Assembly (NCBI GenBank): GCA_028709785.1
Contig: JAQUTK010000004.1
Span: 1 to 64,000 of the forward strand
Source of the DNA: Bacteroidales bacterium
Lineage (GTDB): Bacteria; Bacteroidota; Bacteroidia; Bacteroidales; JAQUTK01
DNA: 64,000 nt
Reading direction: 5' to 3'
Shown: positions 1 through 12,158 of the stretch, in pieces
Layout: every line of letters begins with the position of its first letter
Position numbering within the stretch: the stretch's first letter is position 1
Notes under the pieces: generated by a model
What the model was told of the DNA's origin: nothing
Databases searched by the model: none
The model's input: the letters and a program-made list of their open reading frames with translations, nothing else
Program-made: the position numbers and the translations under genes

Positions 1-538
1 GCAGATTGAGAATCAGCATATTCAGTACCATCTTGATAGAGCCCAGAGGCGAACGAAGATCATGTGCTATTACAGAGTACAGACGATCGCGCCCCATAAT
101 CGTACGTTGCAATTCTTCTGTCTTTTCTGTTATGATCCTTTTGGCTGCAACCAGAGAAATTTGATGTTTTACACGAATGATGAGCTCTTCTTTATTGAAC
201 GGCTTTGAAATAAAATCATTCCCTCCCATCTTAAATCCCTTAACTACATCAGATGTAGTATTCAATGCTGTAAGGAATATAATAGGAACTTCACTGAATT
301 CCGGGAGAGTACGCAAATGTTGAGCAACTTCATATCCACTGATATCAGGCATCATGACATCCAAAAGAATCAGATCAGGCATCTCTTTCTTTGTTGTTTC
401 GATCGCACTCATTCCATTCATCGCTGTCACAATATTGAACTTTTCATTTTTCAATAAAACTTTCAGCAATAAAATGTTTGACATGACATCATCAACAATC
501 AGAATCTTGTAATCAGATGGATTTATTTCCATTACCAT
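1..538 (-). CDS. Response regulator-histidine kinase hybrid, N-terminal part (cut by window edge)
   Basis: The first 179 residues of a gene that runs off the left edge. Residues about 10-125 are a receiver domain: acidic pair D16-D17, phospho-acceptor D60 in LILLDVMMPD, and the conserved K112 in SKPF. A helical linker follows, and then the start of a HisKA domain with its H-box (IAHDLRSPLGS, H159). Nothing in the visible part suggests a membrane segment, so this is probably a cytoplasmic hybrid with the receiver in front of the kinase. The ATPase domain should lie outside the window. The start used is the first ATG (538); an equally good one lies two codons in (532). It begins 4 bp after the stop of the upstream sugar-nucleotide gene, so the two are probably co-transcribed. 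Its partners cannot be told from here. Confidence 0.85.
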   Translation of the reverse strand, partial: MVMEINPSDYKILIVDDVMSNILLLKVLLKNEKFNIVTAMNGMSAIETTKKEMPDLILLDVMMPDISGYEVAQHLRTLPEFSEVPIIFLTALNTTSDVVKGFKMGGNDFISKPFNKEELIIRVKHQISLVAAKRIITEKTEELQRTIMGRDRLYSVIAHDLRSPLGSIKMVLNMLILNL

Positions 539-542
539 AATC

Positions 543-1478
543 TTATCCCAGTTTGGTTTTGAAGTAGTCAATCGTGCGAATCAAACCGTCATTTAGGTGT
601 ACCTTAGGCTCCCAGTTCAGTTTGCTTTTGGCTAAAGTAATATTGGGTTGACGTTGCTTTGGATCATCCTGAGGGAGATCTTTGAAGATAAGTCTGGACT
701 TGGATCCGGTCAGTTCAATGACTTTCTCTGCCAGTTGCCGGATGGTATATTCTCCGGGATTGCCAATGTTTACAGGGCCAATGAAATCGTCACCTGTTGC
801 CATCATCCGAATCATTCCCTCTACCAGATCATCTACATATTGAAAACTGCGAGTCTGACTTCCATCTCCGTAAATTGTAATATCTTCTCCATTTAATGCC
901 TGAACAATAAAGTTGGAGATGACTCGACCGTCGTTTGGATGCATATTGGGTCCATACGTATTGAAAATACGAATGATTTTTATGCGAACATGAAGCTGCC
1001 TGTGATAATCCATGAAAAGAGTTTCTGCACAGCGTTTTCCTTCATCATAACAGGAACGAAAGCCTATGGGATTCACATTTCCCCAATAGGCCTCGGTCTG
1101 TGGATGCACAAAAGGATCTCCGTACACTTCACTGGTTGACGCCTGCAATATTTTAGCTTTTGAACTTCGCGCCAGTCCCAGCATATTGATTGCTCCCATC
1201 ACAGACGTTTTGACTGTTTTTATAGGATCAAACTGATAGTGAATGGGGGATGCGGGACACGCAAGATTGTAAATTTCATCTACAACCGCATAATATGGAT
1301 TTATGACATCATGACGAACTAATTCAAAATGGGGATTACCAATCAAATGAAGTATGTTTTCCTTTGACCCCGTAAAGTAATTATCCAGACAGATAACATC
1401 ATTGCCCTCTTTCAATAAGCGGGTACACAAATGAGAACCGATAAAACCGGCACCTCCTGTTACTAGAATTTTTTTCAT
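543..1478 (-). CDS. UDP-glucuronate decarboxylase (UDP-xylose synthase family)
   Basis: An extended short-chain dehydrogenase that should convert UDP-glucuronate to UDP-xylose in the cytoplasm, feeding polysaccharide or glycoprotein sugar supply. The protein starts at the Rossmann motif ([17 protein letters not shown]; GGxGxxG at residues 8-14), which is why I place the start at 1478 and not at the in-frame ATG 12 codons upstream. The STSEVYGD segment (114-121) and catalytic Y144-x3-K148 (YDEGK) are present. [14 protein letters not shown] and [15 protein letters not shown] are typical of the UXS branch rather than of dTDP-glucose dehydratase or UDP-glucose epimerase. The 311-residue length fits. 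It is followed after 4 bp by the receiver-kinase gene. Another NAD-dependent sugar-nucleotide epimerase/decarboxylase specificity is possible but less likely. Confidence 0.88.
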
Positions 1479-1603
1479 ATTTATATTTATATATTCAACC
1501 GTGTTTTTCCTCAATCAGGCCCATTCTCGCGTAAGTGTCTGGAATACATGCAATAAATGAATCAACAAAAAAAAACCTTCATCGTATCAGACAATACTTT
1601 ATG

Positions 1604-1611
1604 CAAATATA
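1604..1611 (-). promoter_or_regulatory. Predicted -7 box for the UDP-glucuronate decarboxylase gene
   Basis: On the minus strand this reads TATATTTG, matching the Bacteroidetes -7 consensus TAnnTTTG. It would give an untranslated leader of roughly 120 nt before the start at 1478. No convincing -33 TTTG is seen at the usual spacing. Confidence 0.45.
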
Positions 1612-1737
1612 TCAATTGGTTTTAAATAATAGGTGAAAATCAGCAAAAATATGAAATACAAAACAACTATTCAGCAACTATTTTAGCAATTGACAGGATA
1701 ATAGAAACGATTAATCCTTTCAGTTTTAAAAAATGCT

Positions 1738-1745
1738 TACATTTG
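1738..1745 (+). promoter_or_regulatory. Predicted -7 box for the CotH-family gene
   Basis: TACATTTG fits the TAnnTTTG consensus and lies 28 bp before the ATG at 1774, giving a leader of about 20 nt. The -33 region is poor (T-rich, no clean TTTG). Confidence 0.55.
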
Positions 1746-1773
1746 TCGCTTCTCGTACTAATTTATTTAATCC

Positions 1774-4533
1774 ATGAAACGATATTGTTTTTCGCTCTCT
1801 TTTCTTACTCTTTCTTTGATTTCAATAGCAGCAACTTTGAATGAAGTGGAAAAGCCTTTGCAGAAAAGTTCTTCAGCATATAATCATTATACGGATCTCC
1901 CGACAATTCATATCAATACCAACAATAGCGCACCTATAAACAGTAAGATTAATTATGTAACCGGAACAATCACGATAGTCAGTCCTGTTGAAACGGAAGT
2001 AATGACAGATATACCGATGCAAATACGGGGACGCGGCAATTCTACCTGGGGGCTACCCAAAAAACCGTATAAAATAAAACTTGACAACAAGGCGAGTCTA
2101 TTGAGCATGAAGGCAAATGCCAAAGATTGGGTTCTTTTGGCTAATTACGGTGATAAGTCGCTGATTCGAAATGCGCTTGCTTTTGAGATTGGAAAATATC
2201 TTGGAATGTCATTTACTCCTTCTGTTCGATTTGTAGATCTGGCTATCAATGGAGATTATGTTGGTAATTATATGGTTACGGATCAGATAGAAATAGATAA
2301 ACAAAGGGTAGCAATAAAAAAGCAGGATTCTTCGGATGTGGATCTTCCCAATATTACAGGTGGCTATCTGCTTGAAATAGATGGTTTCGCAACCGGTGAA
2401 GCTGTTTGGTTTCAAACCTCAAGGGGACTTCAAGTGACAATAAAGAGTCCGGATGAGGAACAGATCAATGCAAATCAAAAGGCTTATATTTCTGATTATA
2501 TCAGACAATTTGAGGATGTGGTTTTCTCTAGTAACTATAAAAACCCGGAGACTGGTTACCGTGCATGGGTAGATACCACATCTCTGATCAATTGGTACAT
2601 TGCCTGTGAACTGACCGGCAACCCGGACTGCTTCTGGAGTACCTATATCTATAAGCAACGAAATGATCCGAAAATCTACTGGGGACCGCTTTGGGATTAT
2701 GATATTGCTTTCGACAACGATAACCGGTTTACAAATGCTTCAACCTCGCTGATGCGTAACGTGGCTTTCTATCCTCCATGCAAAAACCTCGTACAACGTT
2801 TCTGGAGTGATCCATGGTTTGTCAGGGCCGTTAATCGACGTTGGAATGAATTACTTCAATCCGGATTATCCAGTCATCTTGATAATTATATCACCCAAAG
2901 GTATCGTGAGCTTTATGCTTCACAAGAGCTCAACTATGAAAGATGGCCGGTTCTCGAATCACGCATTTTCAGAGAAATAAGGCTCTTCTCTACCTATGAT
3001 GGATATATCAATGACCTCTCTTCGTATGTCACGAACAGAATCTCATTTCTGACAAATGATTTTGCTGCTGCCAAAGCAGCGCTCAAAGAGGATGAAGAGC
3101 CGGAAGTACCGGAAGTACATAAGAATCCGCAGTTTAAAGCAGAGAACTATTATTATTCCATTACAAATATCAAATCCGGATTGGCTTTGGATATCATAGA
3201 CCAAACACCTGCGGAAGGTGCTTATCTGAACTTATGGACAGCAGATGATGCACGCAGTTCGCAATTATGGCAATTTACTCCTGTAAGCGGTGGTTATTAC
3301 AGCATCAGAGAAAAAGAAAACGGACTGGCCGTAAAGTGTGGTACTTCTTCCGGAGAGTCTCTTTCTTTGGCAACTCCTGATACAACGGATAGTCAACAGC
3401 TCTGGAAGTTGGATACCTGCGCTATAGCAAATGCTTTTGGCCTCATCAACAAAGCGACCAACTATTCTCTGAATAATTCAGGCGGCGGTGTGATAGATGG
3501 GACAAAAGCTATTGGTTATACCTATCGGATGAGTAGTCAGAACCAACAATGGATCCTAACAAAAAAAGAAGCGATTGCAGTAGTGATTGACTCATCAAGA
3601 ATCTTTATTCCTGAAATTGCAGCGATGAAGCTTCAGGATTCTGTCCTTTATCGTATAAAGAATGTGCGTTCAGATAAGTATGTCACCGCATCAGGTATCG
3701 GAATGGATTTACTTCAGGATACGTTAAAAACGGACTCTGAAGATCAGTTCTGGTACTTTACGGGTAACAACTCAAGCGGCTATCATCTTTTCAATAAGAA
3801 ATATAGTGAAGGAGAAGTCTTTATCAATAAGGGTTTGGTGTATGCTAATCCGATACTTTTATCATCAGGCAATGCTCAGAAAGGAGATTGGTATATTGAT
3901 TACTCCCAGATTACGTATGATTATTATGGTATCTTTGCCCGCTATGCCACAACTGATCTTAAATACTGGAATGATTATCAGGTTAGTGGTTCTACTATTG
4001 GTTTCTACAACTACGATGAAGGAAGCCGATGGATGCTAGAGAAAGTGACAATACCTGTTGCGGGCTCCTCCTTACCGGAAATCGGAGGTGAAGTGAAAGG
4101 TAGCGGAGTCTATGACTACGGAGATTCTGTCACATTGAGAGCGCGACCTGCTTTCGGTTATGTCTTCAATAACTGGACGGAAAATGATACTGTGATCAGT
4201 ACTGATTCGGTGCTTAGATTGAAAGCGACAGGTAGCCACACACTGACGGCAAACTTTATCGTTGATCCGATTCTGAAGAATGAATCTCCCCAAACCGATA
4301 GCCAGAGAGATTACTCTATCTTCTATGATCCGAACAGACAGGTTATTCATTGGGTGACTTCCAACGGAGAGAGCCTTCCTTTAGTGGTGGAGATCTACTC
4401 TGTGCAGGGTATGCTGATGATTAAAAAGGAAGCTGACGAGTCTATTGACGTTTCTTCTCTTGCAAAAGGAAATTACATACTTCGTTGGTTGGAGAATGGC
4501 AAGGTGAGATCAGTGAAGTTTGTAAAAATCTGA
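1774..4533 (+). CDS. Secreted CotH-kinase family protein with lectin-like repeats and type IX sorting-like C-terminus
   Basis: A 919-residue exported protein. Order: signal peptide (1-21), CotH kinase-like domain (about 80-420) with RGRGNSTW (85-92) and WDYDIAFDND (307-316, the putative metal-binding aspartates), two ricin-type beta-trefoil-like stretches (about 465-620 and 645-780) marked by QLWQF, QQLWKL, QQWIL and QFWYF, an InlB/Listeria-Bacteroides-type repeat (GYVFNNW..., about 790-835), and a final 70-residue module (VEIYSVQGMLMIKK, then SSLAKGNYILRW) that resembles a type A sorting domain of the type IX secretion system. CotH proteins are atypical secretory kinases; the substrate here is unknown. 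The lectin-like modules suggest binding to glycans. It has its own promoter and a shared convergent terminator. Transport by a type IX system is inference, because no such machinery is in the window. Confidence 0.85.
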   Translation: MKRYCFSLSFLTLSLISIAATLNEVEKPLQKSSSAYNHYTDLPTIHINTNNSAPINSKINYVTGTITIVSPVETEVMTDIPMQIRGRGNSTWGLPKKPYKIKLDNKASLLSMKANAKDWVLLANYGDKSLIRNALAFEIGKYLGMSFTPSVRFVDLAINGDYVGNYMVTDQIEIDKQRVAIKKQDSSDVDLPNITGGYLLEIDGFATGEAVWFQTSRGLQVTIKSPDEEQINANQKAYISDYIRQFEDVVFSSNYKNPETGYRAWVDTTSLINWYIACELTGNPDCFWSTYIYKQRNDPKIYWGPLWDYDIAFDNDNRFTNASTSLMRNVAFYPPCKNLVQRFWSDPWFVRAVNRRWNELLQSGLSSHLDNYITQRYRELYASQELNYERWPVLESRIFREIRLFSTYDGYINDLSSYVTNRISFLTNDFAAAKAALKEDEEPEVPEVHKNPQFKAENYYYSITNIKSGLALDIIDQTPAEGAYLNLWTADDARSSQLWQFTPVSGGYYSIREKENGLAVKCGTSSGESLSLATPDTTDSQQLWKLDTCAIANAFGLINKATNYSLNNSGGGVIDGTKAIGYTYRMSSQNQQWILTKKEAIAVVIDSSRIFIPEIAAMKLQDSVLYRIKNVRSDKYVTASGIGMDLLQDTLKTDSEDQFWYFTGNNSSGYHLFNKKYSEGEVFINKGLVYANPILLSSGNAQKGDWYIDYSQITYDYYGIFARYATTDLKYWNDYQVSGSTIGFYNYDEGSRWMLEKVTIPVAGSSLPEIGGEVKGSGVYDYGDSVTLRARPAFGYVFNNWTENDTVISTDSVLRLKATGSHTLTANFIVDPILKNESPQTDSQRDYSIFYDPNRQVIHWVTSNGESLPLVVEIYSVQGMLMIKKEADESIDVSSLAKGNYILRWLENGKVRSVKFVKI

Positions 4534-4558
4534 CAAGCGGATCACACCGTTATATATA

Positions 4559-4590
4559 GAACAGGAGCTTTCTCAAAGGAGCTCCTGTTC
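4559..4590. terminator. Bidirectional terminator hairpin between CotH gene and alkD-like gene
   Basis: A perfect 11-bp stem (GAACAGGAGCT, 4559-4569, with its complement at 4580-4590) around a 10-nt loop. It sits between two convergent genes and covers the last codons and stop of the minus-strand gene (stop at 4573-4575). The downstream stretch on the plus strand is T-rich (GTATTTT). Confidence 0.7.
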
Positions 4591-5256
4591 GTATTTTAGC
4601 TGTTCAGCCACTTCATTCATTCGTTCGTTTCCGGCATTCAGAAAAAACCGCACTACCCTCTCCCCCTGCTCTCTATCCTGACGCACCAATCCGCGCAGCG
4701 CAAGGAGGATGGCATTGACCAACAAAGAAGAAGAGGAATTGATACTTGTCTCTGATTGCTTAATTATGTACTCCAGCTGTTGTTCATTCCAGACAGTACC
4801 CTTTAAACAGAGACGGTAAATGAGTGTGAAACCGGTAATCCGGACGAACAGTTCCGGCTCTCCAATCCATTCCAATGCTTTTCGGGAAGCATACGGAAGA
4901 GAGGAGAAAAGGTTCAGGCAAACTTGTTCAACAAGTTCCAATTGCTTGAAAGAACGTACCCACTCTTCCGCCGTTTCTTCCGGGAAAGAGTCTGATGGCC
5001 AAAGCATCGTGGCAAGAATCATCATCTCACGGATGTTGCTGTTCCAAAGCAAACGGGCAAAAGAGGCTTCCTTTGGATACCGGAGCGCCATCGATTTAAG
5101 TTGAGGGTAAGAGACACCATAAATCAGACGGTAATCGGCTCCTTTCGCTTTCATACTTTCTGATGTTACTCCATTCATCGTAAGATGAAGTTCTTGCTTC
5201 ATCTTACGCAGGAGGATTTCCTGTTGAGGAGTACAGGGAAGATATTGATTAGTCAT
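4573..5256 (-). CDS. AlkD-like DNA alkylation repair protein
   Basis: A 227-residue, mostly alpha-helical protein. Its repeated helical pattern (YPQLKSMALRYPKEASF then LARLLWNSNIREMMILAT-like segments) resembles the HEAT-like repeats of the AlkD/AlkC DNA glycosylase family, which remove alkylated bases without base flipping. I cannot point to a certain catalytic residue, so the call rests on fold-type resemblance. The start at 5256 (MTNQYLPCTPQQ) overlaps the end of the dipeptidyl peptidase gene by 8 bp, which indicates translational coupling. An upstream in-frame ATG (5328) would put 24 residues deep in the other gene and has no support. The 3' end is built into a terminator hairpin. A different HEAT-repeat role is possible. 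Confidence 0.6.
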   Translation of the reverse strand: MTNQYLPCTPQQEILLRKMKQELHLTMNGVTSESMKAKGADYRLIYGVSYPQLKSMALRYPKEASFARLLWNSNIREMMILATMLWPSDSFPEETAEEWVRSFKQLELVEQVCLNLFSSLPYASRKALEWIGEPELFVRITGFTLIYRLCLKGTVWNEQQLEYIIKQSETSINSSSSLLVNAILLALRGLVRQDREQGERVVRFFLNAGNERMNEVAEQLKYEQELL

Positions 5257-7300
5257 TGACAGAAGGTAAGACAGAATACTCTTTTGAATAACGAAGCATC
5301 TGCGCGGAGTAGCCTTCCGTATAGTCAAGCGTCACATCGATGATATCACCTTTGTCATTCTTTGTCACCACAAAACGGGGATTCACAAATCCTTTGTATG
5401 GAGCGATGTGCAGAGGAACGAAGCGATCCAGGATCTCTTTATGCAATACAGGATCCACTTTCACGCCATAGTTTTCCACCAATAAACGAGCGGCCTGATA
5501 GTCTCCCTCCGACTTGATCCGCTGGACTTCAGTCAGCAGTACGCCAAACTGATTACGAAGTTCCTTGTAATCATTGACAACGACATACGTCTTACCCTCT
5601 TTCACTTTCAGTTCAACAGCGTTAGACTTCATAGCGTGTTCATATGCCCAGCGGGCTATCAACTGACGGTTGCGCATGTGAGCCTCTTCCACATTCTTGC
5701 CAAGTTCTATTCTTGTAAGCTGCGTCATCAGTCCATTCATCATATATTTATAATATTCGGCCTGATAGGCATCGTTGGTGGGAAGAAGTCCTAACTCCAC
5801 CAATTTGGGATCACCCAGATAATAAAGAGCAAACAGATCGGCACGAGCCTCTTCAACCGTCGATCCATACGATTTCAAAGCATCAGGATCTACACCCGGA
5901 AGCAATTTGCCAGAGCCATGTCCCAAACATTCGTGCAAGTCCGTATGCAGATTGTCGGCAATGAAACCATACTCCTTGAGCATATTTACTTCTTTCTCAC
6001 TCCATGCGTATTCCTTTGTAAAACCACTTCCTGCAGCGGCCTTATCATACGCTTCCGTGATATTATCAATAGTCACAGACTTTGAACCATGCATCTGACG
6101 AATCCAATTAGCGTTCGGAAGGTTGATTCCGATCGGTGTGGCCGGATAACAATCACCACCGAGGATTGCCACGTTAATAACTTTGGCCGATACCCCTTTC
6201 ACCTTTTCTTTCTTAAACTGTTTGGCAACCGGTGAATGATCTTCAAACCATTGCGCATTCTTACTGATTATCTCAGTACGCTTGGTAGCTTCGAGATTCT
6301 TGAAGTTAACAGTACTTTCCCAACTTGCCTTCATTCCCAACGGATCCCCGTACGTTTCGGTAAATCCATTGACGAAGTCGATACGGGAGTCCAGATCCTT
6401 TACCCAAAGGATGGCGTATTCATCAAATTGCTTCAAATCTCCCGTACGATAATAAGTGATCAGAGATTCAATAACAGCTTTTTGCTTGTCATTTTCAGCT
6501 ACTGAAGCCGCTTTTTCCAACCATCCGACAATCCGTCCGATGGCCGCTGAATAGAGTCCTCCGACTTTCCACACCTTCTCGGTCAGTTTGCCATTTTCCT
6601 TCACCAGACGGCTATTCAATCCATAAGAAACCGGAGTCTTATCCGTGGTATCTTTCATCGCATTATAGAAATCTTCTGCTTCCTGCTGAGTCACTCCCTG
6701 ATAATAATTGCTAGCGGAAGTTTGCACCAGATCATCGCCATCTTTTTGATTCAGATGTTTGGGTGCCACTTTGGGATCAAAGATATAGGGAACGATAGTC
6801 TCTAACAACTGATCGACTCCCTCTCCTGTTTGCAAAGGCAACAAAGTCGGATCTGTGCTCTTTACAGCATTACGGAAGAAAGATTCAGAAAAATCGGGTT
6901 GAAACTTGTCCGACGCATAATGATGATGAATGCCATTGCTAAACCATACTCTTTTCAGATACACCTCCATCGCTTTGAAATCGGCAGATGCAGTATCCTT
7001 ATAGGAAGTGTAGACCGCTTCTAAGGTACGGCGAATGGTCAGATTATATTTCCCATTCTGATCAAACAGGATATCTCTTCCTTCCAAAGCAGCCTCCGAC
7101 AAGTAATAGAGCAAGGTCTTCTGTTGCAAAGTCAGTTCCTCAAATCCGGGAACTTTGTATCTTAAAATTTCAAGATCTGCAAATTGTTCAACTCTGTAAT
7201 TAAAAGAATCTGTCTCCGTTTGTGGGACTGTTTTTTTCCCATCGCCGTTACAAGCCGTCAGAACGGCCGCTGTCGATAATGCTATCATTAATTTTTGCAT
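5249..7300 (-). CDS. Dipeptidyl peptidase III (M49), lipoprotein
   Basis: A 683-residue zinc exopeptidase that removes dipeptides from the N-terminus of short peptides. Zinc ligands are seen as the family HExxxH motif (HECLGH, H456/E457/H461) and EEARAD (483-488, third ligand). The N-terminus is a lipoprotein signal with lipobox LTAC (C17), so the enzyme should be anchored in the envelope and face the periplasm or the surface, unlike the cytosolic eukaryotic form. Length fits bacterial M49. It is the first gene of a two-gene unit with the AlkD-like gene (8-bp overlap) and has its own -7 box at 7329-7336. Its place in a protein-degradation pathway is inferred from family knowledge. Confidence 0.92.
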   Translation of the reverse strand: MQKLMIALSTAAVLTACNGDGKKTVPQTETDSFNYRVEQFADLEILRYKVPGFEELTLQQKTLLYYLSEAALEGRDILFDQNGKYNLTIRRTLEAVYTSYKDTASADFKAMEVYLKRVWFSNGIHHHYASDKFQPDFSESFFRNAVKSTDPTLLPLQTGEGVDQLLETIVPYIFDPKVAPKHLNQKDGDDLVQTSASNYYQGVTQQEAEDFYNAMKDTTDKTPVSYGLNSRLVKENGKLTEKVWKVGGLYSAAIGRIVGWLEKAASVAENDKQKAVIESLITYYRTGDLKQFDEYAILWVKDLDSRIDFVNGFTETYGDPLGMKASWESTVNFKNLEATKRTEIISKNAQWFEDHSPVAKQFKKEKVKGVSAKVINVAILGGDCYPATPIGINLPNANWIRQMHGSKSVTIDNITEAYDKAAAGSGFTKEYAWSEKEVNMLKEYGFIADNLHTDLHECLGHGSGKLLPGVDPDALKSYGSTVEEARADLFALYYLGDPKLVELGLLPTNDAYQAEYYKYMMNGLMTQLTRIELGKNVEEAHMRNRQLIARWAYEHAMKSNAVELKVKEGKTYVVVNDYKELRNQFGVLLTEVQRIKSEGDYQAARLLVENYGVKVDPVLHKEILDRFVPLHIAPYKGFVNPRFVVTKNDKGDIIDVTLDYTEGYSAQMLRYSKEYSVLPSVND

Positions 7301-7328
7301 AAAAGTTTATTCATTGAATTTGGCATCG

Positions 7329-7336
7329 CAAATGTA
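7329..7336 (-). promoter_or_regulatory. Predicted promoter of the dipeptidyl peptidase III gene
   Basis: Minus-strand TACATTTG (consensus TAnnTTTG) 28 bp before the ATG at 7300. A TTG lies 20 nt further upstream, close to the expected -33 position. Confidence 0.6.
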
Positions 7337-7385
7337 CAAAAAACCAGTAAACTATTCAAGCCCACTTTTGATTCAATTACTATTC

Positions 7386-8504
7386 TTAATTGCTTTTCTT
7401 GTAACTTTGCACAGCCCACAAGAGGAAAAAAACCGCAAATCCAATGAGGGCAGCTAGATTACGGGCGATATCCTGTATGCCGCTTCCTTTCAGATAAACC
7501 ATACGCATAGCTTCTATAAGGTATCGGAGAGGATTGATTGCCGTGATATACTGCGCCCACAACGGCATACTCCGGAATGGAGTAAACAAGCCACTCATCA
7601 TCATCAGAACAATCATAAAGAAGAAGATGACAAACATGGCCTGCTGCATGGTACCTGAATAATTGGAGATGACTAATCCAAAACCGGACATTGCAAAGAC
7701 ATAGATGATGGCAATCAGGTAAATCGTCGCAACGTTTCCAACCGGAATCAGTCCCCATACCCAACAAGCCAGAATCATAGCAATAGTAAACACCAGGAAT
7801 CCCATAATCCAGTATGGCAACAGTTTGGCAATAATGAACGTGAATTTACTGACCGGTGTCACATTGATCTGTTCGATCGTTCCGGCTTCTTTTTCTGATA
7901 CAATATTGAGCGCAGGAAGAAAACTACAAAGCAACGTGAGTAAGATCGTGATCAATGCCGGAATCATATAGGTACGATAACTTAAAGATGCATTGAATAA
8001 ATAACGGGGAACAATCTGTATGACCGGCGTAGAGGAAGATAGTACGACAGGTGCCAGCTCATCCCTCATCTCCAGCGCAAAATCGTTCAGTAAAGTCGCA
8101 ATATAAGAACTGCCAATACCTCCTTTCGCACCATTGACAGAGTTGATGGAAAGCAAAAGATCTCCTTTTCCTTCTCGGGTTAATTTCCGTTCAAAGCCTA
8201 CCGGTACCTCAAGTATCATATCAGCAGTTCCTTTTTCTACCAGGCTCAGAGCCTCTTTGGACGAAGAAGTCACGTCCACCAGGTTGAAATACTCCGACGA
8301 ACTGACTTTCTGTATCAATCGGTTCGTAAGAGGTGATTGCTCATTGAGTACAAATGCGACATTGATGTTTCTGACATCCATTGTCGCTGCAAAAGGCATG
8401 ATCAAAATAATCATGATGGGCATAAAGACCAGCGTCCGGGGCAAAAATGGATTGCGAAAGAACTGCTTAAACTCTTTTTCCAACAGGAATTTCAACGTAC
8501 TCAT
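7386..8504 (-). CDS. ABC-2 type efflux permease (YbhR/YbhS-like), second
   Basis: A 372-residue inner-membrane permease of the ABC-2 (type V exporter) class. One N-terminal membrane segment (about 22-42) is followed by a long periplasmic domain (about 45-175) and five to six C-terminal membrane segments (about 178-370). ISEKEAGTIEQINVTPV in the connecting part is the usual ABC-2 coupling-helix motif. It ends the operon and overlaps the preceding permease by 4 bp (ATGA). By position it equals YbhR of E. coli cecR-ybhGFSR. With the other permease it should form the heterodimeric membrane part of a tripartite drug exporter with the HlyD and TolC proteins. Substrate unknown. Confidence 0.88.
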   Translation of the reverse strand: MSTLKFLLEKEFKQFFRNPFLPRTLVFMPIMIILIMPFAATMDVRNINVAFVLNEQSPLTNRLIQKVSSSEYFNLVDVTSSSKEALSLVEKGTADMILEVPVGFERKLTREGKGDLLLSINSVNGAKGGIGSSYIATLLNDFALEMRDELAPVVLSSSTPVIQIVPRYLFNASLSYRTYMIPALITILLTLLCSFLPALNIVSEKEAGTIEQINVTPVSKFTFIIAKLLPYWIMGFLVFTIAMILACWVWGLIPVGNVATIYLIAIIYVFAMSGFGLVISNYSGTMQQAMFVIFFFMIVLMMMSGLFTPFRSMPLWAQYITAINPLRYLIEAMRMVYLKGSGIQDIARNLAALIGFAVFFLLWAVQSYKKSN

Positions 8505-9616
8505 TGTAATCTGTCTTTAAATAGCTTGATACTAATAGTTAGAAGAACAAATGCCATGATGAATAAAATGATTACTTCGTGATATACGGCATGAATTCCC
8601 AATCCTTCAATCATCACTTTCTTCACACATAGGATATACCATTTGGCGGGAATAATATGAGAGGCATATTGAAGAGGCACAGGCATACTCTCAATCGTAT
8701 AAATCATACCGGAAAGCAGTATGACCGGCATCATCAGGATCATACCGGAGACCAGCATCGCAGCCACCTGGGTATCGACAACAGTAGAAATAAGCAGTCC
8801 GATAGAAAGCGCAACCAATATAAACAACATCGAAATAGCAACCAGCAATCCAAGATTTCCACTCATAGGGACACCCAGTACATAGACGGAAAGCAATAAT
8901 ATCGTTGCCAGATTAACACAAGAGAGCACAAAGTAGGGCACCATCTTGGCAAAGACAATATACAACGGTTTGATCGGTGAAACCAACAGTACTTCCATCG
9001 TTCCCGTCTCTTTCTCTCTGACAATGGAGATAGAGGTCATCATAGCACAAATCAACATGAGTATCAGTCCCATTACACCCGGAACAAAGTTATACGCACT
9101 TTTCGTCTGTGGATTATAGAGCATCTTAACATGAGGGTTAATCTGGATCGTTGTATTCTCAGAAGTAGCATACTTTTGCTGATAAACTGCGAGGATATTG
9201 GTTACATAGCCGACTAATATCTTACACATATTTGGATCAGTACCATCCACCAGTAATTGGATGGAGGCACTGCCCGTATGAAGCAGATTCTGCTGAAAGT
9301 TCTCCTCAAAGGTCAATACGATATCCGCTTTATTCTCAAGAAATGTTTTGTTAATCTCTTCAGTAGTATGGACGTACATCACGGAACCAAAATAGGGATT
9401 GGCTTTCAGTTCGTGGACAATCTCTGTGGTAGCCTGATCATTGGAGGAATCAAGTACGGCAAGTCGGATGTTCTGCACCTCTGTTGTTACCGCGAAACCA
9501 AAGAGGATAATCTGCACGATAGGCATTCCAAACAGGATCAACATGGTCCGCTTATCCCGTAAGATATGACGAAACTCCTTTTGTACAAAAGATAAAAACT
9601 GTTTCATCTGATTCAA
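8501..9616 (-). CDS. ABC-2 type efflux permease (YbhR/YbhS-like), first
   Basis: A 371-residue paralogue of the permease that follows it. It has the same plan: a membrane segment near residues 23-45, a periplasmic domain to about 170, then a bundle of C-terminal membrane segments, with SIVREKETGTMEVLLVSPI as the coupling motif. It overlaps the ATPase gene before it by 4 bp and the permease after it by 4 bp, so the last three genes are tightly coupled in translation. It corresponds to YbhS by position. Together the two permeases and two ATPase subunits should form one transporter. Confidence 0.88.
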   Translation of the reverse strand: MNQMKQFLSFVQKEFRHILRDKRTMLILFGMPIVQIILFGFAVTTEVQNIRLAVLDSSNDQATTEIVHELKANPYFGSVMYVHTTEEINKTFLENKADIVLTFEENFQQNLLHTGSASIQLLVDGTDPNMCKILVGYVTNILAVYQQKYATSENTTIQINPHVKMLYNPQTKSAYNFVPGVMGLILMLICAMMTSISIVREKETGTMEVLLVSPIKPLYIVFAKMVPYFVLSCVNLATILLLSVYVLGVPMSGNLGLLVAISMLFILVALSIGLLISTVVDTQVAAMLVSGMILMMPVILLSGMIYTIESMPVPLQYASHIIPAKWYILCVKKVMIEGLGIHAVYHEVIILFIMAFVLLTISIKLFKDRLQ

Positions 9617-10353
9617 TCTCCTCGTTTTGCTGTTTGGGCCAAGTGATAAAACACCTCTTGCATATTCTTTACCCCATAGTGCAGTTTCAAATTCTTTGGC
9701 GTATCAAGAGCCTCGATACGACCATCTACCATGATGGATACCCGATGACAATATTCCGCCTCATCCATATAGTGGGTAGTTACAAAGACAGTTATTCCCC
9801 TGTCCGAAGCTTGGTATATCAGTTCCCAGAACTGCCTTCGCGTTACGGGATCCACACCACCGGTCGGCTCATCCAGAAAGACAATCTTCGGCTCATGAAA
9901 GATAGCTACAGAGAATGCAAGTTTTTGTTTCCATCCGAGTGGCAACGACTTTACCATCGTGTTTCGTTCATTCTCAAAGTTTAATGTCTGTAGCAATCTG
10001 TCGGTCTTTTCCGCAATTGCCTTCTCGCTCAATCCATAAATGCCGCCATACAGACGAATGTTTTCCCATACCTTCAGATCCTCATAGAGCGAAAACTTCT
10101 GACTCATGTATCCTATATTTCGCTTCACCATCTCCGATTGCCTGGCAATATCATATCCTGCGACAGTTCCAGAGCCGGAAGTAGGAATACTCAGTCCACA
10201 CAGCATGCGCATGGCTGTTGTCTTTCCGGCACCATTAGCTCCTAAGAATCCAAATATTTCACCTTTTGTTACCTGAAAAGAGATTTTGTCCACAGCAGTA
10301 AAGTTGCCGAAACGTTTCGTAAGCAGGTTTGTCTCAATAACTATATTGTCCAT
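9613..10353 (-). CDS. ABC transporter ATP-binding subunit with degenerate signature motif (YbhF C-terminal-half equivalent)
   Basis: A 246-residue nucleotide-binding subunit. Walker A is GANGAGKTT (38-46) and Walker B is IVFLDEPTGGVD (157-168). The signature loop reads LPLGW (137-141) where LSGGQ is usual. The same kind of change is, to my memory, found in the second half of E. coli YbhF, which fuses two such domains. The start at 10353 is 2 bp after the stop of the neighbouring ATPase and begins directly at the domain; an ATG nine codons further up overlaps that gene. With the partner ATPase (intact LSGGM) it should make a heterodimer with one standard and one altered ATP site. Confidence 0.87.
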   Translation of the reverse strand: MDNIVIETNLLTKRFGNFTAVDKISFQVTKGEIFGFLGANGAGKTTAMRMLCGLSIPTSGSGTVAGYDIARQSEMVKRNIGYMSQKFSLYEDLKVWENIRLYGGIYGLSEKAIAEKTDRLLQTLNFENERNTMVKSLPLGWKQKLAFSVAIFHEPKIVFLDEPTGGVDPVTRRQFWELIYQASDRGITVFVTTHYMDEAEYCHRVSIMVDGRIEALDTPKNLKLHYGVKNMQEVFYHLAQTAKRGD

Positions 10354-10355
10354 TC

Positions 10356-11261
10356 TTATTTCGCTAATAACATGTAACAATCTTCTATCGTTGCCTGTAT
10401 CGGATATACTTCAACATCAGCGTGACCTTCCTTCACCAAAAAACATTTCAGCGATGCAGGAGACAGTTGATCATCGATAACAGTAACATGAAGCACATCC
10501 CCAAATGAGAAGCAACTTTGAATACCCTTAAAAGTTCGAAGTTCGGCCAAAAGAGAGGACATCTTATTCGAATGAACAGCCCAAAGCCTCTCCTGATAAC
10601 TATTTACAATTTCTTGCGGAGTCTCTATACCCATAAATTGACCTTCACGTATAAGAGCAATCCGGTCGCAAAGCACAGCTTCGTCCATGTAGGGTGTGGA
10701 AACAACAATAGTAATTCCTTGCTTTTTCAATCGTTGCAGCATTTCCCAGAAATCTCTTCTGGAGACCGGATCTACTCCGGTCGTCGGTTCGTCGAGAAAA
10801 AGCACAGAAGGCTTATGGATCAACGCGCAGCTCAATGCCAGTTTTTGTTTCATTCCACCCGACAGTTTTCCGGCACGACGCGTCTTGAACTTCTCCAAAG
10901 GCTGATAGATATCTTTCACCAGATCATAGTTTTCCCGCACTGTGGTTCCAAAAAGCGTGGCAAAGAAAGTGAGGTTCTCCTCCACGGTCATGTCCTGATA
11001 GAGCGAGAATCGGCCGGGCATATAACCTACCTGCCTTCTGATTTCCTTGTAATCAGTCACCACATCCAGTCCGTTCACAGTCGCTGTACCTAGATCGGGT
11101 AGCATCAGTGTGGTTAGAATCCGGAAAAGCGTTGTCTTCCCTGCCCCATCCGGACCAATGATACCAAAGAGTTCACCCTTCTGAACCTCAAAACTGACTT
11201 CTTGCAGCGCTCTGACAGTACCGTAGCTTTTGGAAATCTTGTTAACTGAAATTGCATCCAT
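10356..11261 (-). CDS. ABC transporter ATP-binding subunit (YbhF N-terminal-half equivalent)
   Basis: A 301-residue ATPase subunit. Walker A GPDGAGKTT (36-44), signature LSGGMKQ (133-139) and Walker B VLFLDEPTTGVD (153-164) are all intact. After the core (about residue 220) there is an extra C-terminal domain of roughly 80 residues, as found in drug-type exporters. It lies 3 bp after the HlyD-family gene and 2 bp before the second ATPase gene. E. coli carries the two ATPase domains as one protein (YbhF); here they are separate cistrons in the same order. Confidence 0.9.
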   Translation of the reverse strand: MDAISVNKISKSYGTVRALQEVSFEVQKGELFGIIGPDGAGKTTLFRILTTLMLPDLGTATVNGLDVVTDYKEIRRQVGYMPGRFSLYQDMTVEENLTFFATLFGTTVRENYDLVKDIYQPLEKFKTRRAGKLSGGMKQKLALSCALIHKPSVLFLDEPTTGVDPVSRRDFWEMLQRLKKQGITIVVSTPYMDEAVLCDRIALIREGQFMGIETPQEIVNSYQERLWAVHSNKMSSLLAELRTFKGIQSCFSFGDVLHVTVIDDQLSPASLKCFLVKEGHADVEVYPIQATIEDCYMLLAK

Positions 11262-11264
11262 GAC

Positions 11265-12158
11265 CTAAAATTTCACCTCTCCATACATACCAATCTTAAT
11301 CAACCCATCATTCTTCACCCGTATCTTTATGGCATAGACCAGATTCTCCCGTTCATCTTTTATCTGAATGGTCTTTGGGGTAAATTCTGCCTGACTTGCT
11401 ATCCAATAGATAACGCCTTCATATTCCTTATAGGCATCTTTACCAGAATCTGTAAAGACCTTTACTTTCTGTCCTAAACGTATCTCGTTGAGTTGTGCAT
11501 TTGTTATGTAAGCACGAAGCGTCATCTCGGATAAATCAGCAATCTTAAAAAGAGGTTTACCCATCATTACCAGTTCGTTGGGTTCAGCGTATTTTACCAA
11601 AACAGTGCCGTCTATCTGACTGCTTATATGTGATTTCATTAATTGATCATCCAACTGTTCTATCTGAATGGCAATAGCTTCACTCTCGTCGCTCAGACTC
11701 CTGTCACTGCTTTTTAATGCAGACAGTTGCGCCTCTTGCTGTTTTTCCAATACGGCGATGGAAGATCTGATATCATCTACCTGTTTTTGTGTGGCAGCAT
11801 TATTCTTTGCCAATATCTCGAAACGATTTAGCTCCCTTTTCTGGGTACTAATCTGTTCGCGAACGGCAGCAATTTGTTTGGCGATATCCGGTTTACGACT
11901 GAGAACTGCCTGAAAACTGGCCTGGAGTTGTCTCTTTTTTAAGTAGAGTTGCACCGTATCCACACAGCCGATCTCAACTCCTGCCTGAAGCGTACTCCCC
12001 TCTTCTACTTCAAACTGCGTCAATTTGCCTGCAGTTTCTGAGGAAATGATTACTTCTGTCGCTTCAAACGTCCCTGTCGCATCCTGTTCTATTCCGTTAT
12101 TACAAGAGGAAAGAAGAAGGATTGAGAATGCCAATCCGGTTATAAAGTCTCTTTTCAT
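11265..12158 (-). CDS. HlyD-family membrane fusion protein, lipoprotein (YbhG-like)
   Basis: A 297-residue periplasmic adaptor. The signal ends in a lipobox (LLLSSC, C19), so it is tethered to a membrane by lipid. A barrel-sandwich half-motif (residues about 30-60, ATEVIISSETAGKLTQFEVE) is followed by a long coiled coil (about 70-170), the return lipoyl half (about 175-215, ISSQIDGTVLVKYAEPNE) and a beta-barrel domain. It should link the ABC permeases to the TolC-type channel encoded just upstream. It lies 11 bp after that gene and 3 bp before the first ATPase gene. Confidence 0.9.
   Translation of the reverse strand: MKRDFITGLAFSILLLSSCNNGIEQDATGTFEATEVIISSETAGKLTQFEVEEGSTLQAGVEIGCVDTVQLYLKKRQLQASFQAVLSRKPDIAKQIAAVREQISTQKRELNRFEILAKNNAATQKQVDDIRSSIAVLEKQQEAQLSALKSSDRSLSDESEAIAIQIEQLDDQLMKSHISSQIDGTVLVKYAEPNELVMMGKPLFKIADLSEMTLRAYITNAQLNEIRLGQKVKVFTDSGKDAYKEYEGVIYWIASQAEFTPKTIQIKDERENLVYAIKIRVKNDGLIKIGMYGEVKF

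What the first reader, a model, noticed from the sequence alone, without database searches (positions are those of the whole stretch)
1774..4533. Surface CotH kinase with glycan-binding repeats and a type IX-like tail
A predicted protein or glycan kinase carries two beta-trefoil-like modules, an InlB-type repeat and a sorting-like C-terminus. That combination suggests phosphorylation at the cell surface or outside the cell, which is rarely described in bacteria.
Basis: partly seen in the sequence, partly recalled or inferred. Interest (0 to 1): 0.5.

Follow-up and report, generated by a model that had tools for sequence, protein, structure and literature searches.

The report
Secreted sugar-binding CotH-type kinase variant
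This gene encodes a protein that the bacterium most likely sends to its outer surface, made of a kinase-fold domain joined to a sugar-binding domain; it belongs to a common branch of the CotH kinase family in which one catalytic-site residue has been swapped, so whether and what it phosphorylates outside the cell is open.

Summary
ORF 1774-4533 (+, 919 aa) has an export-signal-like N-terminus, a CotH kinase domain (E 1.6e-47), a three-QxW ricin-B lectin domain, a weaker second ricin-like module, one InlB-type repeat and a type IX secretion (T9SS) tail above NCBIfam's cut-off. The genome has PorU, SprA/Sov and GldM, and 53 tail matches, 49 over cut-off. A model of the CotH domain (pLDDT 78) matches solved Bacillus cereus CotH at Z 29. 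dN/dS against one close relative is 0.17.

It is not rare: 184 of 295 genomes of the order carry CotH, 11 copies here. What I add is a split in the family. Catalytic and metal-binding Asp are kept, but the Asn equivalent to PKA N171 is replaced by Ser. Of 149 aligned domains, not a random sample, 102 have Ser and 47 Asn, and the Ser group has its own near-invariant E279 and R178. That looks re-tooled, not decayed, but activity is untested. Best reading: a surface-anchored, glycan-tethered phosphotransferase of the Ser-type CotH branch; substrate and phosphate donor unknown.

The parts
1774..4533 (+). whole gene, 919 aa: export signal - CotH - ricin-B lectin - second ricin-like module - InlB repeat - T9SS tail
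1774..1836 (+). N-terminal export-signal-like stretch (residues about 1-21)
   Evidence: read by eye from the sequence; no predictor run
2023..3048 (+). CotH kinase domain (residues 84-425)
   Evidence: PF08757 E 1.6e-47; AF2 model pLDDT 78.1, Z 29.1 to 5jd9
2626..2628 (+). D285, equivalent to the catalytic Asp (D228 of B. subtilis CotH; my mapping)
   Evidence: alignments; D228Q is catalytically inactive in B. subtilis (PMC7821199 passages)
2638..2640 (+). S289, in the place of the catalytic-loop Asn (PKA N171 equivalent)
   Evidence: that Bacillus CotH keeps an N171 equivalent is from a passage of PMC12189002
2695..2697 (+). D308, DFG-like Asp (WDYD)
   Evidence: Asp in 149 of 149
3130..3564 (+). 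ricin-B beta-trefoil lectin domain (residues 453-597, three QxW)
   Evidence: PF14200 E 4.5e-21, PF00652 E 5.9e-9; QxW
3643..4038 (+). second, weaker ricin-like module (residues about 624-755; only 624-676 match a profile)
   Evidence: PF14200 E 2.7e-5, just under its cut-off
4075..4257 (+). InlB B-repeat-like domain (residues 768-828)
   Evidence: PF18998 E 7.4e-11
4330..4527 (+). T9SS type A sorting tail (residues 853-918)
   Evidence: TIGR04183 32.1 bits, cut-off 23; also found in the whole-genome search
4559..4590 (.). terminator-like hairpin between this gene and the convergent next gene (13 pairs)
   Evidence: consensus match only (4 sites found in the region, 2.6 expected in shuffles)

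Best explanation
A single-gene unit for a secreted, surface-bound phosphotransferase of the CotH family. The protein is exported to the periplasm, taken across the outer membrane by the T9SS through its C-terminal tail, and left on the cell surface. The ricin-B domain(s) hold it on a glycan (capsule, lipopolysaccharide, glycosylated surface protein or outside polysaccharide), and the CotH domain transfers phosphate onto a nearby protein or glycan. It belongs to a widespread branch (here called Ser-type) whose active site is re-tooled: catalytic Asp and metal Asp kept, catalytic-loop Asn replaced by Ser, new near-invariant Glu and Arg. Shown by sequence or model: domains, fold, T9SS components present, residue swap, purifying selection against one relative. 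Inferred: surface location, glycan binding, activity, substrate, donor.
For: Domains; T9SS components and tails in the genome; CotH fold. In 102 Ser-type domains position 285 is Asp in 99 and Glu in 3, D308 is Asp in all 102, W307 is Trp in all 102 (by my mapping the adenine-side Trp245, using the chain numbering). Ser-type residues E279 101/102, R178 100/102, D203 98/102 and K294 94/102 are nearly fixed, whereas the commonest residues in the 47 Asn-type are Ile, Lys, Leu and His; decay would not be expected to leave this. dN/dS 0.14 in the CotH domain and 0.18 in the lectin against the 83%-identical copy in the same gene order in L026. In this genome all 5 Ser-type CotH proteins carry ricin-B and none of the 6 Asn-type do at E <= 0.01.
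Against: I know of no activity shown for a Ser-type CotH. Loss of the metal-binding Asn could mean no phosphotransfer. ATP is not normally at hand outside the cell (general knowledge), and I recognised no donor or substrate gene by eye among the ORFs of window 1-12000 (no family search of the neighbours). Outside this genome the lectin link is loose: RicinB_lectin_2 in 6 of 29 Ser-type proteins, window included. D203 may not be special to the branch: 5jd9 has Asp residues next to that column.
Confidence: 0.5

Rival explanations
1. A catalytically dead CotH fold used as a surface binding or adhesion module: the pocket binds nucleotide or nothing, and the protein works as a glycan- or host-binding adhesin.
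For: Catalytic-loop Asn missing in the whole Ser group; lectin and InlB-type modules; some fungal CotH proteins are reported to mediate interaction with host GRP78 or integrin (passages of PMC9973265).
Against: D285 and D308 are near-invariant and the group has its own fixed polar residues; purifying selection is as strong in the CotH domain (0.14) as in the lectin (0.18).
Confidence: 0.25
2. A Ser-type CotH that acts on an exopolysaccharide or its synthesis, as a glycan kinase or with polyphosphate as partner, not on proteins.
For: The 3 plasmid homologues found (3 of 72,556 records, E <= 1e-5) sit beside polyphosphate polymerase and DUF4956 genes and are Ser-type; the same kind of gene set is reported beside pel operons in streptococci and clostridia (passages of PMC7112168; their residue type was not checked); lectin fusion here.
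Against: No such genes were recognised beside the window gene; the one VTC-type match of this genome is on another contig, C18; the two settings may differ in function.
Confidence: 0.15
3. An ordinary protein kinase exactly like Bacillus CotH, phosphorylating Ser-rich surface proteins by the same mechanism.
For: Fold match Z 29.1; both key Asp kept.
Against: Asn-to-Ser switch and group-specific residues; only 17% identity to 5jd9 in the structural alignment.
Confidence: 0.1

Closest known systems
Bacillus CotH (PF08757; PDB 5jd9, 5jda)
   Same: Kinase fold over 334 aligned residues, Z 29.1; catalytic Asp, DFG-like Asp and the Trp before it in the same places
   Different: Ser in the place of the catalytic-loop Asn; export signal-like start, lectin, InlB repeat and T9SS tail; 17% identity
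CotH - polyphosphate polymerase - DUF4956 gene sets, some beside pel operons
   Same: The CotH of the 3 plasmid sets examined is also Ser-type with the same Glu
   Different: No linked polyphosphate polymerase or DUF4956 recognised here; lectin or tail of those CotH proteins not checked
Cellulosomal CotH-like proteins
   Same: CotH-like domain placed outside the cell with carbohydrate machinery (PMC12484212 passages)
   Different: Part of cellulosomes there; T9SS tail and lectin here. Their residue type was not checked
Fam20C / Golgi casein kinase (4kqa, 5yh0)
   Same: Same broad atypical kinase fold (Z 10.0 and 10.6)
   Different: Distant; eukaryotic; different accessory parts

Membership tests
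CotH kinase family (PF08757) | Pfam profile match over cut-off | tested here: met
   163 bits against 23.8, positions 1-321 of 322
CotH kinase family (PF08757) | CotH fold | tested here: met
   Z 29.1, 334 residues aligned to 5jd9; the next row after the two CotH entries is 12.6, PI4KII
CotH kinase family (PF08757) | catalytic Asp (D166-like) and metal Asp (D184-like) | tested here: met
   D285, D308
Bacillus-type (Asn-type) CotH | catalytic-loop Asn equivalent to PKA N171 | tested here: not met
   S289; Asn in 47 of 149, Ser in 102 of 149. A profile alignment shifts the Ser by one place; then a variable residue, Thr here, faces the Asn
active protein kinase | phosphotransfer to protein | not testable with these tools
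   needs an assay
T9SS type A cargo | C-terminal sorting domain over cut-off | tested here: met
   TIGR04183 32.1 bits, cut-off 23; but PF18962 22.6, under 27. The TIGR04183 control rang over cut-off in 1 of 14 named genomes
T9SS type A cargo | secretion machinery in the genome | tested here: met
   PorU 1133.5 bits, SprA 2817.9, GldM 505.9; PorV, GldK, GldL, GldN not searched
Ricin-B lectin | profile match and three QxW lobes | tested here: met
   sugar binding not testable here

The most novel reading that the evidence does not exclude
The Ser-type CotH branch is a distinct class of extracytoplasmic phosphotransferase, with a different metal or donor arrangement (Ser289/Glu279/Arg178 in place of the usual Asn) and with surface glycans or glycan-bound proteins as targets; it is widespread in Bacteroidota and also present in Bacillota and Deinococcota, and I found no member that has been assayed.
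Probability: 0.25. Interest if true: 0.7.

Novelty: new variant of a known kind. Interest (0 to 1): 0.42.

Why it matters
Phosphorylation outside the bacterial cell is little explored. A common, apparently secreted kinase-fold family with a consistent and unusual active site, kept under selection and in part tied to glycan-binding parts, gives a concrete test: does it phosphorylate, with what donor, and what. Any annotation 'CotH kinase family protein' on this branch currently rests, as far as I could find, on a relative with a different catalytic loop.

Tried and rejected
Linked substrate or operon: none recognised by eye; the gene is alone between a minus-strand SDR-like gene and a convergent minus-strand gene, and the same order stands in L026. 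Sigma-70 promoter scan: no more than chance (11 found, 9.1 expected); a TAnnTTTG Bacteroidales-type element (consensus recalled, from no call) can be read at 1738-1745, untested. Full-length structure model: poor, pLDDT 47.7; not used. Residue distances in the active site were not measured: no model coordinates are laid in the Python box. Chance or decay of the gene: rejected by E-values and dN/dS; the dN/dS rests on one pair of sequences and the signal stretch alone gave 0.48.

Ser/Asn counts, with limits. My first labelling called L023 and L024 Ser by default; the column count puts both in Asn. So corrected, 43 of the 77 domains of that tree are Ser-type and form one clade, support 0.951. 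The 77 were chosen by score: best Pfam hits, best hits to the window protein, own paralogues and the 6 loci (five titled Prevotella, Prevotellaceae or Bacteroidales, one titled Williamsia sp.). 40 more were picked by me from the list (27 Ser, 13 Asn). 29 are best phylum hits to the window protein, so biased to Ser-type, and 3 are plasmid hits. Identical proteins were counted once. Dropped before counting: 4 partial rows (two from L039, one each from L037 and L087) and a second, Asn-type CotH match in L171. The Ser share is therefore not a survey estimate. Whether B. subtilis, fungal, cellulosomal or pel-linked CotH are Asn- or Ser-type was not tested, apart from the printed part of 5jd9 (Asn).

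Papers: CotH+T9SS, none; CotH+'type IX secretion', one listing on Rhizopus; CotH+Prevotella+'outer membrane', one review; CotH+kinase+bacteroid, 48 papers, 20 listed; CotH kinase/lectin/Bacteroidetes, 20 of 2,374 listed; a mixed search, 15 of 1,075 listed. Judged by title, none of the listed papers treats such a protein; most were not opened. The library is open-licence only, and the CotH structure paper (Nguyen 2016) is not held, so its own residue analysis was not read.

Full report
What is there. The window ORF 1774-4533 (+) encodes 919 residues. Pfam and NCBIfam give, in order, CotH (84-425), ricin-B lectin (within 453-597), an InlB-type repeat (768-828) and a T9SS type A tail (853-918, 32.1 bits, cut-off 23). 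A second ricin-like module near 624-755 is supported only weakly. The genome holds PorU, SprA/Sov and GldM far above cut-off and 53 tail matches at E <= 0.001, 49 of them over cut-off, so a system that can use the tail is very likely present.

Is it a kinase fold? A model of residues 21-436 from 10 sequences reached pLDDT 78.1 and pTM 0.82. Its best solved matches are Bacillus cereus CotH 5jd9 (Z 29.1, 334 residues, rmsd 3.6) and 5jda; the next row is PI4KII at 12.6. Foldseek agrees (E 3.5e-13 for 5jda and 4.6e-13 for 5jd9, next 0.14).

Is it a working kinase? B. subtilis CotH D228Q is described as catalytically inactive (passages of PMC7821199). A review states that CotH keeps the residues matching PKA D166, N171 and D184 and sandwiches adenine between Tyr142 and Trp245 (passage of PMC12189002). 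In the window protein the D166 and D184 matches are D285 and D308, but the N171 match is S289 (my mapping through the alignment to 5jd9). Over 117 domains, nearly all from genomes of the order, the column is Ser in 70 and Asn in 47, with nothing else; with 29 phylum and 3 plasmid sequences, 102 Ser and 47 Asn. In the Ser group E279 (101/102), R178 (100/102), D203 (98/102), W307 (102/102) and Y166 (101/102) are nearly fixed; in the Asn group position 279 is Ile in 21 and Val in 13 of 47, and position 178 is variable, while Tyr at 166 is common there too (40 of 47). In a FastTree tree of 77 domains the Ser group is one clade of 43 with support 0.951 (labels corrected). The profile alignment shifts the Ser one place from the Asn, so 'Ser replaces Asn' is exact in the MAFFT alignment only; in both, no conserved Asn is left at that place. 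A branch that lost one catalytic residue but holds several other residues fixed looks re-tooled and not dead, but this is inference.

How common? 184 of 295 genomes of the order have CotH at E <= 0.001 (3 of 14 named control genomes do), and 108 of 295 have a match to the window's first 629 residues at E <= 1e-20; 47 of 198 phylum genomes do. These counts include the window's own genome. This genome has 11: the window gene plus four in tandem on C21 (Ser-type, all with ricin-B) and six Asn-type without a ricin-B match on C53 (three in tandem), C15, C13 and C49. Among 29 Ser-type proteins (window and 28 from the order), 8 have a Pfam T9SS tail match, 6 RicinB_lectin_2 and 4 F5/8 type C at E <= 0.001. 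So extracellular carbohydrate-binding partners recur but vary, and most of the 29 have no ricin-B.

Links outside the phylum. A search of 72,556 plasmid records found 3 homologues, in Pseudobutyrivibrio, Deinococcus and Planococcus; all three are Ser-type and lie beside polyphosphate polymerase and DUF4956 genes. The same kind of gene set was reported next to pel exopolysaccharide operons in streptococci and clostridia, with regulation of Pel synthesis by phosphorylation suggested there as one possibility (passages of PMC7112168). This ties the branch loosely to exopolysaccharide, not to this gene directly: the only VTC-type match of this genome lies on contig C18.

Selection. Between the window gene and L026, dN/dS is 0.17 overall, 0.14 for CotH, 0.18 for the first lectin domain, 0.17 for the second module and 0.48 for the signal stretch (figures for the InlB repeat, the tail and the neighbours were not obtained).

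Verdict. The Ser-type active site is the unusual point, and it makes the 'kinase' label on this branch an open question worth an assay.

Noticed in passing
L178:3001-4158 and L180:2755-4701: CotH genes on two viral contigs, both over Pfam's cut-off; by eye one lies between a DNA polymerase-like and a helicase-like gene, the other near structural-looking phage genes.
   Followed up: partly
L021:3809-12057 (contig C21): Four CotH-ricin genes in tandem. Two match DUF6383 at the C-terminus (one over, one under its cut-off); in the second the match overlaps the T9SS tail match, so DUF6383 may be a tail variant.
   Followed up: partly
L022:2134-5274: A 1046-aa protein 24 bp upstream of an Asn-type CotH gene, with no family over cut-off: a possible partner or substrate.
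   Followed up: no
L175, L176, L177: CotH, polyphosphate polymerase and DUF4956 genes side by side on plasmids of three genera.
   Followed up: partly
L171: A second, Asn-type CotH match lies in the same stretch as the Ser-type one.
   Followed up: no
L029:1455-3521: A CotH-ricin protein with a T9SS tail in a metagenome-assembled record titled Williamsia sp.; a T9SS tail is unexpected in that genus, so the contig may be mis-binned or mis-named.
   Followed up: no
window 7386-12158: Two ABC permease-like genes, two ABC ATPase-like genes and a membrane-fusion-like gene on the minus strand, an exporter-like operon (read by eye).
   Followed up: no
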